Below, piece after piece: positions 31,320-39,595 of a stretch of 64,000 nt of DNA. The translations under genes were made by a program, and so were the position numbers. The DNA lies in assembly GCA_016926755.1 (NCBI GenBank), contig JAFGNZ010000216.1:1-64000 (forward strand), read 5' to 3'. Every line of letters begins with the position of its first letter. Position 1 is the first letter of the stretch. The notes under the pieces are model-generated. The model did not search any database. It saw only the letters and a program-made list of their open reading frames with translations, and was not told where the DNA came from. This DNA is from Myxococcaceae bacterium (GTDB lineage: Bacteria > Myxococcota > Myxococcia > Myxococcales > Myxococcaceae).

Positions 31320-31496
31320 GACACTCCCAGTGTAGACCACGAGTGTCCGGAACCGTGTACACGCGGAGGTGGGGACTGTGTACCTCGTGTCATGGGTCGC
31401 CAGCCCTGGGTCGGACACCTGACAAGCGGGTGGCTCGGACAGCGGGTCCCCAGGGGCCACGGGCGCCAGGGCGAGCAGTGGAAGTATGTTGCGGGC

Positions 31497-32543
31497 ATGG
31501 AGCCGATGCCCGACGTCACCCGCTTCTTTCACCCCGTGCTGCCTGCCCGCACGCTGCGAAAGAAACCGCTCCGTGTGGAGCTGGCGGGCCGCGCGTACGC
31601 GCTGTTCAGAGATGGAACAGGCAAGGCCGCGGCGCTCGCGGATGCCTGCCCGCACCGCTTCGCCCCGCTCTCCGCGGGGAGGGTGCGAAAGGATGGGCGG
31701 CTGGAGTGTCCGTACCACGGGTGGAACTTCGACGCCGAGGGCCGTGGCCGCAGCCCCAGCCAGCCGGACCTGAAGCGGTGCGACACGCGCGCCTTCCAGG
31801 TCGTCGAGCGCCACGGCTACCTCTGGCTGGCGGACCGGGACGCTCCGCTGTCGGCCTTCCCGGACTTCGTGCCGGAGGGGTTCGAGTTCACCGGCAGCTT
31901 CTCCATGCTCTTCCGCGCGCCGCTGCACGTGGCGCTGGACAACTTCAGCGAGGACGAGCACACGCCGTTCGTCCACACCCGCCTGGGGTGGGATGATCAT
32001 GACACGGGGGGCATCGAGTTCTCGGCGGAGAACCACGAGGACCGGACGGAGGTGCACTACCGCGCGCCCCAGCGCGCCAGCTGGCTCGTGAGGCTGCTGC
32101 TGCTGAAGCCCGGGGACTTCTTCCACAACGACTGGGTGACGCGCTTCGATCCTGTGCGCGCCGGCTACACCATCCGGTGGACGGGGAAGGCGGGCGAGCC
32201 GCGTCCGTTCACCCACCACTACGCGATCTTCATGGTGCCGGAGACGGCGCGCACCACGCGCTTCCATGTCTTCGCGTTCCTGAAGCTCCTGGACCCGCGC
32301 TACCGGCCCCTGCTGCCCGTGGTGAGCAGGGCCCACCGCGTGCTGGCCTGGTTCGAGGTCCGCGATGACGCGCTCTTCATCCCCACGGTGGCCGACACGC
32401 CGTACAGCATGAAGGGCATGCGGCTGGGCAAATACGACAAGCCGCTGATCCACCAGCGCAAGCTGCTGGAGCGCATCTACTTCGGCCAGGGCACGGAGGA
32501 GGCCGCCGCGCTTGTCTTCCTCGCCCAGAGTTCTGGGACTTGA
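31497..32543 (+). CDS. Rieske non-heme iron oxygenase
   Basis: A 348-residue oxygenase alpha-type subunit. The N-terminal Rieske [2Fe-2S] site is CPH (51-53) and CPYHGW (71-76). The catalytic mononuclear iron site is DNFSEDEHTPFVH (148-160), with the D..H....H pattern. Such enzymes hydroxylate or demethylate aromatic or other cyclic substrates using electrons from a separate reductase, which is not seen nearby. Length matches single-component-type vanillate demethylase/phenylpropionate-like oxygenases. The ATG at 31497 was chosen because the Rieske fold begins right after it. The 177-base divergent region to the DUF547 gene contains a GTGTACAC palindrome (31355-31362). Confidence 0.88.
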   Translation: MEPMPDVTRFFHPVLPARTLRKKPLRVELAGRAYALFRDGTGKAAALADACPHRFAPLSAGRVRKDGRLECPYHGWNFDAEGRGRSPSQPDLKRCDTRAFQVVERHGYLWLADRDAPLSAFPDFVPEGFEFTGSFSMLFRAPLHVALDNFSEDEHTPFVHTRLGWDDHDTGGIEFSAENHEDRTEVHYRAPQRASWLVRLLLLKPGDFFHNDWVTRFDPVRAGYTIRWTGKAGEPRPFTHHYAIFMVPETARTTRFHVFAFLKLLDPRYRPLLPVVSRAHRVLAWFEVRDDALFIPTVADTPYSMKGMRLGKYDKPLIHQRKLLERIYFGQGTEEAAALVFLAQSSGT

Positions 32544-32636
32544 AGTGCTGAGTTGGCACGTTCAACAGAGGCGAAGAGGCGAAGCCTCATCATACGGCCA
32601 ACAGAGGTGTTGGAGGCCTTACCGATACCGGCTCTT

Positions 32637-35282
32637 TTAAGGACTGATTTCTGCGAGGAACTCTACGACCTCGAGATTCTCTCGATCGGCGCTGGCCTCC
32701 ACGGTAAAGCGCGAACGCATACTGCGGGCACGCAGTTCCTCGATCCAGCCAAGTGCTCGTGCAGAAGGAACACGTCTCTGGAGCAGTGCAAAATACAGAT
32801 ACGTATATTCGTCGGCGAGTCGCGTCGCAAAGGTGATCGGGTCGTCCGAGTTGATCGAGACGAGCAGTTCCGAATGATCCCTGTCTGGAATAGCGCTGTC
32901 TTGCGCCACTCCGCCGGGCATTAGCCAGCGCTCCGCGAACTGGAATACAGGGTGCTCCTCTAGGCCGGTGAGATCTCCGATAAGGAGATTGCTGGACGGG
33001 TTCATTTCTACTGTGATTTCCAATCTGGCCAACTCGCTGTGCAGCCAGCGCTGCACCTCCTGAAGGAAGTCTAGCTCCGCGTCGTCGACCCGCACCTCTA
33101 CTGATTGTTGCCCTCTACGGAAGATATTGGGGTCGGTGAGGTACCAGGAAAGTGGATCACCTGTGCCCTGGAATCGGCCATCTGGAAAGCCGCGCTGAAA
33201 GAGCGCGCCGGGTTGAAGTCGACTGCGGCGAGCGAATGCCAACATGGCAAGGCTTGGGCCATCCCCATATATGCGCCGTGCCAAGCCCTCTGCTTCCGCA
33301 CGAACCCGTTCCACCCTTCCTGGATGGGCCGGGACATTCCCACTCCCGTACCGATCCAATTCCCAGAGCAGATCATCGAGGCGATCTTCGATGGTTTGCA
33401 CAACAAGAGTGGCTGAGTCTGCCCAGCGTCGCGGAGCAATGCCGAGGGCCAAGCCGTGACCAATACGGTCACCGTTCCGGAGCAGTCCAGCCTCGTACAA
33501 CTCGTGCACCCTGCGCACGCCTTCCACAAGCCGGGCAAACTCCTCTCCAACGTGACAGGTCAACCGCATTGGAGGAACGTTCCAGTGTGGCCTGGCTTGG
33601 AGCAGGACTTCCGAAGCATCTACCGAGGCTTGGCGAACCGATGAGAGCAAGTCCACCGTGGCCCAGGTAGGAATGGCCAACTCAGAGCTCGCGATGTCGA
33701 CCCCGCGGATAAGAAGGAGCAGTTCCGGGTGATATACTAGCGCCTGTCGGAGTGCGAGAACCTCACGCCTGCGGTCGCTAAACCATGAGCCGTAACGAAA
33801 CCCGCTAGCATCTTGGCTGGGATCCGCGTACAGCCGGTTCATTCCACGCGGTTGCTGCCGCTTGATGAAGTGGAACACTAGGCCAAGTTCCGGCTCCTGA
33901 CTGCTTGTTTTGGGATTAGGTTGCCATTGACGCCTTGCCCTAGCAAGCTGCTGCACTTCATTGCGGATGCCCAGCCATTGAGCTGGTGGAGCGGTACGCA
34001 TCTCTAGTGCGCCAAGACGTAGATCGACAGATTGGTGTCGCAACGCCGCCACATACTTCTGCTCGTCTAGAGGCCCGCGCAACGCGGAGAGTCGATCGTA
34101 AAAGCGCCGGAACCAGTCGAGGCCGGAGGTTCCCGGCTCTTGGACAAGATAGGCATGCGCGAGGCAGCGGACGCGCTCATACTGCCAGAAGATCTCGGCA
34201 AATCCCACATCCGAGGAGCCCTCGCCGAGAAGGTAATGGATCGCACGTGACGCGAAGAGAGTCTCGCAGCATGCGCCGCCCGGCTGGGGTTGAAGCCATG
34301 TGGACAGGGGATCCGCGCGAAAGAGGTCATCGTATTCCTGCAGAGGCATTCTCCCTGCATCATCGGAGAGCAGCATGTAGAGCCGTTGCGCGTCCACGAA
34401 TGAAGGGGCCGGACCCGTCCCTGCCAAATCTGCCAGCACTCTGTGGCACAACTGGAGCGCCAGTTGTGCTCCTTCCGGCCAATCAAGGTGTTCGCAGATT
34501 TGATGCATTTCTCCATACGAGAATGAGCTGAAGTCTCCTGCGAAAGCCGTCAACTCGCGGGCGCGGAGAAACGAGGCGAGGAAGAGGCGGCAAATGGCGG
34601 CTGCAAGTAACTTCCCCGAGAAGGACGCTCCATCGCCGAACGGAACTTTATCGCCCGGAAGACCGGAGAGCGTCGGTTCACCACGAGCCAGCCATACCAT
34701 CCAGGTGCTCCAGAGCACTGGGAAGCCGAAGGCTGCACCAACATGTAGATGGTTATCCGCTACAGGTTGGTCTTGGAGCACTCGCCGAAGATGCTCTGTC
34801 GCAAGCGAAAGGTGATCCGCGGGAGGCCGTATCGAGTTGGGAGCGTATAGGGCCGAGATGATCAGGTCGCACGGCATCCGCAAGGAAAGCCACCGCCAGT
34901 GGGAGACACGCTCGCTGGTGCTCAATCCTGGCACAGAAGCATCGGTGTTGATGACGATGCGTACACCTCCCCGCTCGATATATCGCTCCGCAAGTTGGGT
35001 TAGGTACCGTGCGAGCGGCACCGTGCGTGAACCTGTAACCTCGGTGTCAACCGTCGCGAACCAGGTGCTATCTCTGAGCACTGCAAGATTAGCGAGGCTC
35101 ATCCCGTTGGCGCGCACGCGCAGGTGCTCCTCTAGCCCCGCAGCGAGCCTTGCGGTTGCCTGGTTCATGATTGCCATGTCAGTGCGAACCAACTGCGTCG
35201 TTCGCTCCTCATAGGCAAGCGCCGAGCTGAACGGCCATGCTTCGACCTCGGCGCGCAATCTGCTGTGCGGGATTTGAGACAT
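32637..35282 (-). CDS. rdrB: RADAR defence protein RdrB-like, divergent adenosine deaminase
   Basis: An 881-residue protein with all elements of the adenosine deaminase metal site. They are HxH at 178-180 (ADNHLHVGAA), HVGEEF from 577, DRIGHGLAL with GHG at 608-610, MNPSSN from 760 and SINSDDP at 809-815. Large insertions between these blocks make it more than twice the size of housekeeping Ada and match the RdrB component of RADAR. RdrB deaminates adenosine nucleosides/nucleotides, and RNA editing has also been reported, in phage-infected cells. The gene begins 19 bases after the rdrA-like stop. Third-position G+C is visibly lower than in flanking genes, consistent with horizontal transfer. 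The housekeeping alternative is unlikely given the size and the partner. Confidence 0.85.
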   Translation of the reverse strand: MSQIPHSRLRAEVEAWPFSSALAYEERTTQLVRTDMAIMNQATARLAAGLEEHLRVRANGMSLANLAVLRDSTWFATVDTEVTGSRTVPLARYLTQLAERYIERGGVRIVINTDASVPGLSTSERVSHWRWLSLRMPCDLIISALYAPNSIRPPADHLSLATEHLRRVLQDQPVADNHLHVGAAFGFPVLWSTWMVWLARGEPTLSGLPGDKVPFGDGASFSGKLLAAAICRLFLASFLRARELTAFAGDFSSFSYGEMHQICEHLDWPEGAQLALQLCHRVLADLAGTGPAPSFVDAQRLYMLLSDDAGRMPLQEYDDLFRADPLSTWLQPQPGGACCETLFASRAIHYLLGEGSSDVGFAEIFWQYERVRCLAHAYLVQEPGTSGLDWFRRFYDRLSALRGPLDEQKYVAALRHQSVDLRLGALEMRTAPPAQWLGIRNEVQQLARARRQWQPNPKTSSQEPELGLVFHFIKRQQPRGMNRLYADPSQDASGFRYGSWFSDRRREVLALRQALVYHPELLLLIRGVDIASSELAIPTWATVDLLSSVRQASVDASEVLLQARPHWNVPPMRLTCHVGEEFARLVEGVRRVHELYEAGLLRNGDRIGHGLALGIAPRRWADSATLVVQTIEDRLDDLLWELDRYGSGNVPAHPGRVERVRAEAEGLARRIYGDGPSLAMLAFARRSRLQPGALFQRGFPDGRFQGTGDPLSWYLTDPNIFRRGQQSVEVRVDDAELDFLQEVQRWLHSELARLEITVEMNPSSNLLIGDLTGLEEHPVFQFAERWLMPGGVAQDSAIPDRDHSELLVSINSDDPITFATRLADEYTYLYFALLQRRVPSARALGWIEELRARSMRSRFTVEASADRENLEVVEFLAEISP

Positions 35283-35301
35283 GCGAGGGAGCTTAGGGAT
35301 T

Positions 35302-38300
35302 TCAGTGGCCAGTAGGTTTGGTTCGCTTTACTTTCTGCGGCCCGCTGCGGGGCGGACGAGGCTTCCGCATCAGCACGACCCATGGATGTTTTTTTTGTTT
35401 ACGGTCAATTTGGTGCAGGAATTCCTTCACTTCGCCCCGGGGAATTCCCGACGAAGTCAGCCGCTCTTCGCGCATATGGAGCAAGCGAAGCCGCTTACGA
35501 GGGTCTTTTTCGAGTTCAGCTTGTGTAAGGCCCAGGAGCGCATTGACGCCTGCTAAGGAGAGCCCACATTCAGGTGCAGCCATCAAAGGTAGTTGTGCGA
35601 GCCATGCGTCAAAGAGTGACTGCCGGGCTTGGTGAACAGAATCTTGCCGACTGGAGAGTGACATAGTCGCCCGCTCCCAATCCTGTCGATTAGGCCCAAC
35701 ATGTAACTCTTCGTCTGGTGAACGCCTTGAGGAGAGGTCCTGAGTGGAACGCAGCAGCCAGTACGCGAGTGCGTCTACGTACTTCGCGCCCTCTCCACGT
35801 TCTCCGGAGGGATTGGTGCGCCTTACGGTTGTCACCATCTTGTTCCAAACTGGCTCCAGCAACTCGTTTTCCAGCAGAGTTGGCCAAGCTGGAACCATCC
35901 ATGGGGAGTATTCATAATTCCCGTATCGGAACACCGCGCCAGGCCATGGTTCGATCTTGGGGAACAGCATCGGCATGTCGTTGCCCTGTTGGTCCACCGT
36001 ATAGTCCCTTGCCATGCGGAGGATCACCTCGAGCATCGGATTCAGGTTTTTCTCCTCGCTTGAGGTCGCCCAGGCATGGAGTTCGGTTACGTCGGTTTGG
36101 AGATCGTTATTGGCCCACAACCGCACCGGTTGAATGCTTGGTCCAGAGTTCCTGCGCCTCGTGGGCAGTTGTTCCTTCCTGGTCAATCCTTCCAGAAGAC
36201 GAGGGTTGATCACCAACGATCCTCCTTCTTCCCGGATCGCGTTGTACAAGCGCTTATCGGCATTGCTCCAGTCCAGGGCGACCTGCCAGAGCGCAATCAG
36301 GGCCGGCGCACCCTCTCCCGAGATAGGCCTGAAGGAGCTAAGGGTCTCCGTAGCTCGGCGCAAGAAGGCGGGAGGCGCCGCCTCAAGCAATTTTCGCCGA
36401 TAAGGAGTGAGATAGTCTTGCAGGGACGCAGTTCTTGATCTCCCGATAATATGACTCAGCCAAGGAATGCGAATCCAATTGAGAGCTGTCTCGAAGCCCT
36501 CGAGAAGTTTGTCCGGCGCACGTCGCAGTTGCTGGGCCTCGATCATGCTTCCGAACTCATGCTCTGAGAACAACTCGTCGATCCGGTCGATCCAGGAGTC
36601 GCTATCGGAAGTGACCTTCTCGTTCAAAGGGATTGCCAGAAGGCGAGCACGACGTGCTTCTCGGAGTTTCATCTTCGCCTGGGCCCAGTTTTCGCCAAAA
36701 GCTGTGCGCAGGCCATGTAGAAGTTGATTGGCGACTGACGGCGGAAGCCCCGATTCAGGTGCGGCCATCAATCCTGCGCGCGAGAGTGCCCAGTCCGATA
36801 GCGCGGATTGTCGTGATGACTCGCTAGTTCTGGAGGCGAGCGCTGCGACACGATTGACCAGTTCCGGCCATTCAAGGAGCACATCGTAAGACTCGGGTTC
36901 CGAGGTTCGTGCTCCCTCGGCCCGAGGTTGTGGCTGCATCGGCTTGAAGCGCGGACCAGTCCCCACGCTGATCACGGCGGACAGGAAGTAGCGTGCAAGG
37001 TAATCGAAGAACGTAGGCCGCTCGCCCGAGAAGATTAGTCCAAGTTCCCAGGTTTCCTTCATCGCGTAGAGATCCTCGAACGATCCCCAATTGGGAATAG
37101 GCCAGGGTGCCACGACCTGACCTTTCTGGACCAGGACGCCGCTTCCATGGGCAAACACTGGCTCGCGCAGCCCCATGATGGCTGGTGAGTGAGTCCTGAA
37201 AGCACCATGGAGGTCATCCGCAGCGAAGTTGGTCGCTAAGATGAGGGCAGCGGTCGTCTGTGGATCGAGTTCCTTCCCCCGAAACGCTAGGCGGAACCGT
37301 TCGGGCACATCGAGAACCAGTTGCCACCCTTGAGTGCTCCGGTGAGTACTCCAATGCTGCCGGACTGGGGTCGCGACGAATCCATCCTCCACCCATAGCA
37401 ACCGAGTTCGATGGACCATCCGCTGAAGAGCGTTCACTATGTCAGGCCCCAGGGGGGCATTACGCAACGCAAACTGCCAGAAGGACTCCACGGCCGCAGC
37501 GGTTGGGTCCTCCTGGAGTTCGTGCTGCTTTGTTCTCTCGACAGCGAGTGCGAGTTCGCCGTAGAGATCCCACAGGGACCTGAGCCGTTCGGGCAGGGCT
37601 TCTCGTACTTGAGTTCCTTGATGGAGATAGTTCTGGAGCGACAGTACCCACCTCGGCTCCTCCCCTTCTCGGGAATGGATGGGGAGGCGCCCGAGCAAGT
37701 CCTTGAGTTCTGGCAATGCGGAGATCCGCTCCCCCTCCGGTAAAGGGGGCAGTGGGCACCTATGGCCTTGCGGAATCACTTTAGCATAGATCTCTAGCGC
37801 GAGCGTTTCAAGGCGAGCCTGATCGGTAGTTGGTACTCCCGTCCTGTCCAGTTGCACATCCCGGATCAACTCTTGCTTCATCATTTCGACGAAAAGAGCG
37901 CTGTGTCCCGTGAGCAGGAAAGCAAGCCGTGGATGATATAATGTCCTGATGACCTCCAAGAGGTGCGCGGAAAGCCGTGGATTCATGTCGGCGTCGTCGA
38001 CGGCAAGCAAGAACAGCGGCTTGGGCCCGGAGCCTTGGTAGGCGAGGCCGAGGTAGTCGTTGGTCAGCGCATCCATGAACTCGCGGAATACGGCCGGTAA
38101 GTCGAGTCTACGGATGTCCTCATTCAACTGTTCAAGGGCAAACGCCTCGGCGTCGAGCACTTTCTTGCGGGCATGCACGTTGCCGCCCCCGTGACTGGCC
38201 GCGACACGGACGAAGCTACGCCACAGTCGCAGCGAACTGGGCTCATCTGCTGCGGGGACGTGCCAGGGCAGCGCCCCAGATTTGCCGTGCTCGCGGCGTG

Positions 38301-38751
38301 GCCAGAGCGTGTGCACCACGCGTTCTAGGTTGCCTATCAAGAGGAACAAGAGATTTGTAGCCGCAGGTAGCGGCTGAAGGTCTGCTAGCCCCACAGGTAC
38401 GATTCGGTCCGAGGGATCGAACCAAGATTCAAAACCGGGGGGTGCTCGCCCATGTAGCAAGGTCTCCGAGTAGCCTGCCAGCAGTGTGAGTAGGAGCGCG
38501 GATTTGCCCGAGCCACGATTCCCATCAAGCAGCACGACATGGTTGGTGCGTGCTTCGTCGAGGGCAGGTAGGAACCGTCGTGACTCCGGAGGGATGAGTC
38601 GCCCTGGAGGGCTGGCCTTGGCCATCGCATGAAGGAGCGCTGCGGCCTGTTCACCGGCGGAGCGTTGCTCCGCTGTGAGGTGCTCCATATCCCGGATAGG
38701 GCCTGCCTCACGGCGAGGCTGGATTTCCGTCATTCCACGCTGCGGAGCCAT
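35302..38751 (-). CDS. rdrA: RADAR defence protein RdrA-like, AAA-type ATPase
   Basis: A 1149-residue ATPase upstream of the deaminase gene. Walker A is DGNRGSGKSALLLTLL (Lys at about 83), Walker B is PLFLLAVDDADMN (about 245-257) and a sensor-like strand LAFLLTGH follows. The rest is helical and long, as in the RdrA partner of RADAR, which forms a ring and cooperates with RdrB. Two C-terminal segments repeat each other (LMAAPESGLPPSVANQLLHG and LMAAPECGLSLAGVNALLGL, about 420 residues apart). The ATG at 38751 is six bases from GGGAG; the upstream ATG at 38757 touches it. Composition is less G+C-rich than the neighbours. No SLATT or Csx27-type accessory gene is visible. Confidence 0.82.
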   Translation of the reverse strand: MAPQRGMTEIQPRREAGPIRDMEHLTAEQRSAGEQAAALLHAMAKASPPGRLIPPESRRFLPALDEARTNHVVLLDGNRGSGKSALLLTLLAGYSETLLHGRAPPGFESWFDPSDRIVPVGLADLQPLPAATNLLFLLIGNLERVVHTLWPRREHGKSGALPWHVPAADEPSSLRLWRSFVRVAASHGGGNVHARKKVLDAEAFALEQLNEDIRRLDLPAVFREFMDALTNDYLGLAYQGSGPKPLFLLAVDDADMNPRLSAHLLEVIRTLYHPRLAFLLTGHSALFVEMMKQELIRDVQLDRTGVPTTDQARLETLALEIYAKVIPQGHRCPLPPLPEGERISALPELKDLLGRLPIHSREGEEPRWVLSLQNYLHQGTQVREALPERLRSLWDLYGELALAVERTKQHELQEDPTAAAVESFWQFALRNAPLGPDIVNALQRMVHRTRLLWVEDGFVATPVRQHWSTHRSTQGWQLVLDVPERFRLAFRGKELDPQTTAALILATNFAADDLHGAFRTHSPAIMGLREPVFAHGSGVLVQKGQVVAPWPIPNWGSFEDLYAMKETWELGLIFSGERPTFFDYLARYFLSAVISVGTGPRFKPMQPQPRAEGARTSEPESYDVLLEWPELVNRVAALASRTSESSRQSALSDWALSRAGLMAAPESGLPPSVANQLLHGLRTAFGENWAQAKMKLREARRARLLAIPLNEKVTSDSDSWIDRIDELFSEHEFGSMIEAQQLRRAPDKLLEGFETALNWIRIPWLSHIIGRSRTASLQDYLTPYRRKLLEAAPPAFLRRATETLSSFRPISGEGAPALIALWQVALDWSNADKRLYNAIREEGGSLVINPRLLEGLTRKEQLPTRRRNSGPSIQPVRLWANNDLQTDVTELHAWATSSEEKNLNPMLEVILRMARDYTVDQQGNDMPMLFPKIEPWPGAVFRYGNYEYSPWMVPAWPTLLENELLEPVWNKMVTTVRRTNPSGERGEGAKYVDALAYWLLRSTQDLSSRRSPDEELHVGPNRQDWERATMSLSSRQDSVHQARQSLFDAWLAQLPLMAAPECGLSLAGVNALLGLTQAELEKDPRKRLRLLHMREERLTSSGIPRGEVKEFLHQIDRKQKKHPWVVLMRKPRPPRSGPQKVKRTKPTGH

Positions 38752-38832
38752 CAACATCTCCCTTCGAAGAACTCTTCCCGCCCGCTGTTCCTACCAGGGC
38801 GTATTCCCGGGCCCAAGCCGATACCGATCCAA

Positions 38833-38871
38833 GTTGCACCCCACGCAAGATCCTGCTGCGAACGGTGCAAC
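38833..38871. promoter_or_regulatory. Inverted repeat upstream of the RADAR-like operon
   Basis: GTTGCACC (38833-38840) and GGTGCAAC (38864-38871) are perfect inverted copies 23 bases apart. They lie in the divergent region about 80 bases upstream of both rdrA and the F420-reductase-like gene. A dimeric regulator could bind them, but no regulator gene is adjacent. Confidence 0.35.
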
Positions 38872-38950
38872 ACACGCCCCACCCTGGGAGCGCTATATCT
38901 CCGCGCATCGAGAGGCCCTACAGGCCTTCATACCACTCAGGAGTGAACGC

Positions 38951-39595
38951 ATGAGCCAGAACCCTCGCATCGCCATCGTCGGCGCCGGCAACGTTGGCGG
39001 CAACCTCGGCATCCGTCTCGCCGGCAGCGGCTACTCCGTCCGCTTCGGCGTTCGGGGAGGCTCGGAGGTGAAGGACCTGCTCGCGAAGTGCCAGGGCCGG
39101 GCCGAGGCCTCGAGCGTGCCCGAAGCCGCCGCCTGGGCTGACGTCATCTTCCTCGCCGTCCCCGCCGGCGCCGCCCTGGAGGCCGCCCGTGCCATGGGTG
39201 AGCTCTCCGGCAAGGTCCTCGTGGACTGCAACAACCCGCTGAAGTGGGAGGACGGCCCCGTTCATACCCCACCCCCCGAGGGCTCCATCACCGCCGCGCT
39301 CGCCAAGGCCTTCCCCAAGGCTCGCGTGCTCAAGGGCTTCTCCACCTTCGGCGCCGAGTTCCACCTCGATCCGAAGATCGGGGATACGTCCATCGACGTG
39401 CACCTCGCCGGGGATGACGCGGAGGCCAAGGCGCTCGTCGCCTCCATCGCCACCCGCGCCGGCTTCACGCCCATCGACGTGGGCCCGCTGCGCAACGCCG
39501 CCCTGGTCGAGTCACTCGCCATCCTGTGGATCCACCTCGCCATGAGGGCCGGGCACGGTCGGCAGATCGGCTTCAAGCTGCTCAAGCGAGGGTAA
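38951..39595 (+). CDS. NADPH-dependent F420 reductase-like oxidoreductase
   Basis: A 214-residue Rossmann protein with IAIVGAGNVGGNLGIRLAGS at the N-terminus and the block VLVDCNNPLKWEDGP, then VLKGFSTFGAEFHLDP. This order is typical of the NADP oxidoreductase, coenzyme F420-dependent family (FNO-like), which also includes many non-F420 dinucleotide-binding proteins. Whether F420 is used here is unknown. The ATG at 38951 directly precedes the nucleotide-binding strand; the frame upstream to 38675 overlaps the rdrA 5' end and is a shadow. Its high G+C contrasts with the adjacent RADAR-like island, so it marks the right edge of that island. Confidence 0.8.
   Translation: MSQNPRIAIVGAGNVGGNLGIRLAGSGYSVRFGVRGGSEVKDLLAKCQGRAEASSVPEAAAWADVIFLAVPAGAALEAARAMGELSGKVLVDCNNPLKWEDGPVHTPPPEGSITAALAKAFPKARVLKGFSTFGAEFHLDPKIGDTSIDVHLAGDDAEAKALVASIATRAGFTPIDVGPLRNAALVESLAILWIHLAMRAGHGRQIGFKLLKRG

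What the first reader, a model, noticed from the sequence alone, without database searches (positions are those of the whole stretch)
32637..38751. RADAR-type anti-phage system (RdrA-RdrB) in a composition-distinct island
Two adjacent minus-strand genes encode an ATPase with Walker A/B and a giant adenosine deaminase with a complete metal site (HxH, HVGEE, GHG, SxDDP). Size, order and architecture match RADAR. The genes are visibly less G+C-rich than both flanks, as expected for an acquired defence cassette. No accessory membrane gene (SLATT or Csx27) is present, so this would be a minimal two-gene form, and the RdrA is long.
Basis: partly seen in the sequence, partly recalled or inferred. Interest (0 to 1): 0.85.

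Follow-up and report, generated by a model that had tools for sequence, protein, structure and literature searches.

The report
Divergent myxobacterial RADAR with doubled module
This is a distant myxobacterial version of RADAR, a bacterial anti-virus machine that probably spoils the cell's ATP when a phage attacks; its ATPase carries its C-terminal, possibly sensing, module twice, and standard annotation models miss or under-score this whole branch.

Summary
Two adjacent minus-strand genes encode an 881-aa adenosine-deaminase-fold protein (32637-35282) and a 1151-aa AAA ATPase (35302-38757). Homology to RADAR is real for both: RdrB nearly end to end (profile-profile E 1e-66, all zinc/catalytic residues present), RdrA over its ATPase domain (prob 97-99 against 36 or less for 30 unrelated AAA_16 proteins). 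They form a 6.3-kb low-G+C insertion: a same-genus genome is colinear on both sides with 773 bp there instead. Both proteins fall far below curated RADAR cut-offs (127/800 and 22/600 bits), and none of 195 Myxococcota genomes passes the RdrB cut-off, yet 30 of 147 in the class carry relatives, RdrA then RdrB. They form a separate clade with two groups; this genome also carries a group-2 copy next to PsyrTA defence genes. New here: RdrA is long because a ~320-aa C-terminal module is tandemly duplicated (E 1e-24; reversed controls null). No membrane accessory gene is present; a candidate one accompanies many group-2 loci. Best reading: phage-triggered ATP-to-ITP poisoning by a divergent RADAR subtype. 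Defence was not tested and both structure models were useless. New variant of a known kind.

The parts
32637..35282 (-). rdrB-like gene, 881 aa, adenosine-deaminase-fold effector
   Evidence: PADLOC RdrB E 3.9e-28; NCBIfam RdrB 127 bits; PDB 8fnw RdrB E 6.8e-18 single sequence, 2.1e-53 with alignment; hhalign to RADAR RdrBs E 1.4e-66
34743..34751 (-). RdrB H178-L-H180, zinc-ligand HxH (E. coli RdrB H152/H154)
   Evidence: both His invariant in A1; E. coli residues from PMC9994260
33543..33554 (-). RdrB H577-V-G-E580, zinc ligand and catalytic Glu (E. coli H498/E501)
33456..33461 (-). RdrB G608-H609, zinc ligand (E. coli H530)
32838..32846 (-). RdrB D813-D814-P815 C-terminal metal/catalytic Asp motif
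   Evidence: invariant in A1, aligned to SDDP of E. coli RdrB
35302..38757 (-). rdrA-like gene, 1151 aa, AAA ATPase with duplicated C-terminal module
   Evidence: hhalign to RADAR RdrA prob 99.1, E 1.6e-18; AAA_16 controls
38500..38523 (-). RdrA Walker A GNRGSGKS (residues 79-86)
   Evidence: G79, R81, G82, G84, K85 invariant in A2
37993..37998 (-). RdrA Walker B Asp254-Asp255 in VDDADMNP
   Evidence: invariant in A2
37903..37905 (-). RdrA His285 at the position of the sensor-1 Asp of RADAR RdrA; several relatives have Asp, Gln or His
36529..37509 (-). RdrA C-terminal module copy 1 (residues about 417-743)
   Evidence: profile-profile match to copy 2, prob 99.6, E 1.1e-24; reversed controls prob 0.1-0.2
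35356..36318 (-). RdrA C-terminal module copy 2 (residues about 814-1134)
   Evidence: same; short RdrAs have one copy; DNA-level trace 35542-35586 / 36727-36771, 73%
32537..38832 (.). inserted low-G+C segment relative to sister genome G081
   Evidence: colinear flanks 31353-32536 and 38833-39591, 773 bp between them in G081

Best explanation
A two-gene, divergent RADAR-type anti-phage system acquired as a cassette. Inferred working: RdrA, an AAA ATPase, assembles as a ring and uses its fast-evolving C-terminal part, here two tandem copies of one module, to sense a phage product or infection state; it docks on the RdrB deaminase assembly and licenses it to convert ATP and dATP to ITP and dITP, poisoning the nucleotide pool and stopping phage growth, probably at the cost of the infected cell. 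Shown here: homology of both proteins to RADAR, gene pairing and order, complete catalytic residues in both, purifying selection, insertion at a site that is empty in a sister genome, the module duplication. Inferred from characterised RADARs: assembly, substrate, trigger, outcome. Inferred from rate and position only: that the duplicated module is the sensor.
For: RdrB aligns nearly end to end with RADAR RdrBs from plasmids, one of them annotated RdrB (hhalign prob 100, E 1.4e-66; 8fnw/8hr7 E 2.1e-53), and all five residues that define E. coli RdrB chemistry (H152, H154, H498, E501, H530; PMC9994260) are present and invariant in 21 relatives. RdrA: prob 97-99 over about 290 columns of the ATPase domain, spanning the stretch between Walker A and B where RADAR RdrA carries its crown insertion; 30 AAA_16 proteins of the same genome reach at most 36 over at most 64 columns; the best PDB hits of the family profile are RdrA chains, though weak (E 0.05). 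In the related loci examined RdrA lies directly upstream of RdrB on the same strand, as in RADAR. Acquisition: colinear sister genomes G081 and G083 lack it, G+C drop, unrelated contexts in most relatives. Defence neighbours: the second system in the same genome abuts PsyrT/PsyrA matches (924 and 363 bits) and locus L042 abuts the candidate pair PDC-M38A/B. C-terminal modules are 54% and 49% identical to those of the Archangium copy, the ATPase core 75%.
Against: Scores are far below the curated cut-offs of both RADAR models (127/800, 22/600 bits) and PADLOC's RdrA model gives only E 0.052. The C-terminal part of RdrA shows no detectable similarity to the plasmid RADAR RdrAs. The window copy itself has no known defence gene directly beside it, and no viral or phage record yielded a relative. 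No functional data were found for any member of the clade.
Confidence: 0.8

Rival explanations
1. A RADAR homologue with the same architecture but a shifted activity: this RdrB branch deaminates another nucleotide or a signal molecule, or the pair serves inter-strain competition or development, with defence lost or secondary.
For: Deep divergence from other RADARs (profile-level RdrB identity about 21%); RADAR-like loci occur in 15 of 16 genomes of one genus, mostly group 2, often with recurrent neighbours and G+C above the flanks, unlike rare, patchy RADAR, which could mean domestication of that group.
Against: All catalytic residues kept; the window's group is patchy, mostly in scattered contexts, and absent from a colinear sister; other members sit by PsyrTA and PDC-M38; RADARs with proven defence are similarly divergent from each other (RdrB 24-28%, RdrA 22-25% in the ATPase only; PMC9994260).
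Confidence: 0.14
2. Not RADAR: a generic STAND/AAA ATPase next to an unrelated metabolic adenosine or AMP deaminase.
For: Pfam sees only weak AAA_16 and A_deaminase hits below gathering score.
Against: RdrB homology well outside the ADA core, RdrA-specific similarity against AAA_16 controls, consistent pairing and order in related loci, RdrB-model score five times that of housekeeping ADA models.
Confidence: 0.03
3. A decaying or non-functional relic of an acquired RADAR.
For: Low G+C and His at the sensor-1 position.
Against: Both frames intact over 6.1 kb; dN/dS about 0.16 and 0.23 against the Archangium copy; every catalytic residue kept; His at that position also in the full-length L047 RdrA.
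Confidence: 0.03

Closest known systems
RADAR (RdrA-RdrB) of E. coli, Citrobacter rodentium and Streptococcus suis; structures 8fnt/8fnv/8fnw, 8hr7-8hrc
   Same: Two-gene operon, ATPase upstream of deaminase; RdrB zinc tetrad and catalytic Glu; N-terminal AAA ATPase with a long Walker A-Walker B stretch followed by a large C-terminal region.
   Different: Sequence far below curated cut-offs; RdrA C-terminal region not detectably related to the RADAR RdrAs compared, and duplicated (two ~320-aa modules); sensor-1 Asp replaced by His.
RADAR with a SLATT or other small membrane gene (e.g. Aureibacter plasmid locus L076, SLATT after RdrB)
   Same: RdrA-RdrB core.
   Different: No membrane partner in the window; many group-2 relatives have different membrane neighbours (families f3 and f25) with no SLATT match above cut-off.
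Cad1 (CARF-adenosine deaminase, type III CRISPR; PMC11645235)
   Same: Effector chemistry of the kind proposed: ATP to ITP by an adenosine-deaminase domain (from the paper's title and abstract only).
   Different: Controlled by cyclic oligoadenylate through a fused CARF domain; no RdrA partner. A functional analogue, not a family match.

Membership tests
RADAR | RdrA and RdrB encoded in tandem, RdrA first | tested here: met
   window and related loci
RADAR | RdrB: homology over most of its length, zinc His tetrad and catalytic Glu | tested here: met
   with residues from PMC9994260
RADAR | RdrA: AAA ATPase domain of the RdrA kind (not any AAA) | tested here: met
   hhalign prob 96.9 for the single window sequence, 99.1 for the group profile; 30 AAA_16 controls at most 36; best PDB profile hits are RdrA chains, E 0.05
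RADAR | Curated NCBIfam equivalog cut-offs NF041744 (800 bits) and NF041743 (600 bits) | tested here: not met
   127 and 22 bits. The cut-offs mark the curated subfamily, not RADAR as a whole; RADAR proteins with proven defence are very divergent from each other (PMC9994260)
RADAR | RdrA C-terminal helical lobe as in E. coli and S. suis RdrA | tested here: inconclusive
   no sequence match of the modules to plasmid RADAR RdrAs; the region is highly variable even among proven RADARs (PMC9994260); model unusable
RADAR | Crown insertion in RdrA, three insertions in RdrB, 7-mer and 12-mer assemblies, RdrA-RdrB docking | not testable with these tools
   structure predictions pLDDT 32-33; only indirect: about 170 residues between Walker A and B
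RADAR | ATP/dATP deamination to ITP/dITP on infection and phage protection | not tested
   needs the bench
RADAR accessory gene (SLATT or similar; optional) | small membrane protein in the operon | tested here: not met
   no such ORF in 32300-39100

The most novel reading that the evidence does not exclude
Myxococcota harbour their own RADAR subtype, overlooked because curated cut-offs exclude it, in which phage sensing is modular: one set of systems senses with two tandem RdrA modules and no membrane partner, while another uses a single module plus a dedicated membrane protein (family f3 or f25) that reports from the envelope, and has become a near-core, vertically kept immune locus in one genus.
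Probability: 0.25. Interest if true: 0.75.

Novelty: new variant of a known kind. Interest (0 to 1): 0.52.

Why it matters
What RdrA senses in a phage infection is an open question about RADAR (stated as such in PMC9994260). A clade in which the candidate sensor region is a recognisable module, present once or twice, gives a natural experiment: delete or swap one copy and see whether phage range changes. It also shows that present annotation models miss or under-score a branch found in about a fifth of the genomes searched in this class, so surveys that call RADAR rare (under 1% of genomes) may understate it at least there.

Tried and rejected
AlphaFold models of RdrA and RdrB with the two sequences the tool permits (window and Archangium lansinium) gave pLDDT 32 and 33, so no fold search was run on them. 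Viral contigs and phage records yielded no relative. Boundary features: no tRNA in the window, no convincing flanking repeat. Idea that long RdrA arose twice (long and short are intermixed on the RdrB tree): the module tree puts all second copies together (85/86 support, 87% of bootstraps), which favours one old duplication with later losses, but not firmly. Gao et al. 2020 and the second 2023 structure paper are not held; no paper on myxobacterial RADAR was found among those held. A regular-expression table of Walker spacing was too patchy to use.

Full report
WHAT IS THERE. Two minus-strand ORFs, 35302-38757 (1151 aa) and 32637-35282 (881 aa), 19 nt apart, RdrA-like first in the direction of transcription. 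G+C is 0.58-0.60 against about 0.70 around them.

IDENTITY OF RdrB. PADLOC RdrB E 3.9e-28; NCBIfam RdrB 127 bits against 25 or less for housekeeping adenosine deaminase models, but the curated cut-off is 800. Against the PDB the only strong hits are RADAR RdrB chains (8fnw/8hr7/8hrc and 8fnv): E 7e-18 for the single sequence, 2e-53 for the family alignment. tblastn on plasmids returned seven loci with a large gene upstream of the deaminase, one of them annotated rdrA-rdrB (Aliivibrio) and one followed by a SLATT gene (Aureibacter). An alignment of the window's group against those RdrBs matches nearly end to end (prob 100, E 1.4e-66, 727 columns). The zinc tetrad and catalytic Glu of E. coli RdrB (H152, H154, H498, H530, E501; PMC9994260) correspond to H178, H180, H577, H609, E580, all invariant in 21 relatives, as are D813, D814 and P815.

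IDENTITY OF RdrA. Single-model searches are weak: PADLOC RdrA 0.052, NCBIfam RdrA 22 bits of 600, AAA_16 below gathering score. Profile-profile comparison is clear: prob 99.1, E 1.6e-18 against the plasmid RADAR RdrAs over the ATPase domain. As a control, 30 AAA_16 proteins of the same genome compared the same way scored at most 36 over at most 64 columns, while 17 myxobacterial RdrAs scored 93-98 over 207-287 columns. The family profile's best PDB hits include RdrA chains, though only at E 0.05. Walker A (GNRGSGKS, 79-86) and Walker B (D254, D255) keep their key residues in 13 relatives. The sensor-1 position, Asp in E. coli RdrA (PMC9994260), is His285 here.

A SEPARATE CLADE. In 147 genomes of the class, 30 carry a relative of this RdrB; in the loci examined RdrA lies directly upstream of RdrB on the same strand, except where the contig or the gene calling cuts it short. 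With the curated RdrB model, none of 195 Myxococcota genomes exceeds the cut-off. On the RdrB tree the myxobacterial sequences form one clade apart from the plasmid RADARs (100/99; long branches are present, so the exact placing among RADARs is unsure), with two groups: group 1, which holds the window, and group 2. This genome holds both: the group-2 copy is on contig C276 (L004).

AN ACQUIRED CASSETTE. The same-genus genome G081 matches the window on both sides, in the same order, at 68-88% nucleotide identity, with 773 bp where the window has 6.3 kb (window 32536 to 38833); G083, another genus, is colinear too and lacks it. The nearest relative, in Archangium lansinium (RdrB 76%, RdrA 58-59%), lies in a different context. 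No tRNA or flanking repeat was found.

WHY RdrA IS LONG. Residues 417-743 and 814-1134 are homologous: hhalign on the eight long RdrAs gives prob 99.6, E 1.1e-24 over 295 columns; reversed-sequence controls and the N-terminal domain give prob 0.1-0.2. Short RdrAs of the same group (792-872 aa) have one copy. A tree of modules puts second copies together and single copies with first copies, suggesting one old duplication and later losses. Neither module matches the C-terminal region of the plasmid RADAR RdrAs. Between window and Archangium the ATPase core is 75% identical, the modules 54% and 49%. Duncan-Lowey et al. proposed the C-terminal domain as the sensor (PMC9994260); fast evolution and duplication fit that, but do not prove it.

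DEFENCE CONTEXT. The C276 copy abuts genes matching PsyrT (E 9e-279) and PsyrA (E 4e-109), a known defence pair; locus L042 abuts the candidate pair PDC-M38A/B. The window copy has no membrane accessory gene, and its flanks are shared with genomes that lack it.

MECHANISM. Taken together: a maintained (dN/dS about 0.16 and 0.23), acquired, two-gene RADAR-type system, most likely acting by phage-triggered (d)ATP to (d)ITP conversion. Chemistry and outcome are inferred from characterised RADARs. It is filed as a divergent RADAR clade: homology, order and active sites were tested and met; the curated sequence cut-offs were tested and not met; assembly, activity and defence could not be tested.

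Noticed in passing
L004:3718-9945 (G000:C276, same genome): A second, group-2 RADAR-like operon (RdrA 916 aa, RdrB 935 aa) with a 198-aa, four-TM gene upstream (family f25, related gene in L064), next to PsyrTA matches.
   Followed up: partly
L051:7503-8666 and relatives (family f3): A 365-477-aa protein with 3-5 predicted TM segments and no Pfam or NCBIfam match above cut-off lies beside group-2 RdrB in several different gene contexts, co-directional right after RdrB in L069 (in G023:C50 a partial match lies just downstream of RdrB on the same strand), and within a few genes of short group-1 RADAR in L044/L045. In the class search every genome with a match over 200 bits also carries a RADAR-like RdrB, nearly all beside it; exception G081. 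Candidate accessory membrane protein; relatedness of the genomes was not corrected for.
   Followed up: partly
G057-G072 (genus g6): RADAR-like loci occur in 15 of 16 genomes of this genus; G068's copy (L049) is a separate branch, the rest look like group 2. Several species share the same neighbours and G+C is above the flanks, so group 2 looks vertically kept there, unlike the rare, patchy RADAR of other bacteria.
   Followed up: partly
L049 (G068): A RADAR-like pair on a long branch of its own next to group 2, very low G+C (0.53-0.56 against 0.65): a possible third group.
   Followed up: no
L077:5014-10052 (Rhizobium leguminosarum plasmid pRLN3): A RADAR-like pair followed, about 0.9 kb later, by a gene annotated adenylosuccinate synthetase, a purine-pathway enzyme that uses IMP.
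   Followed up: no
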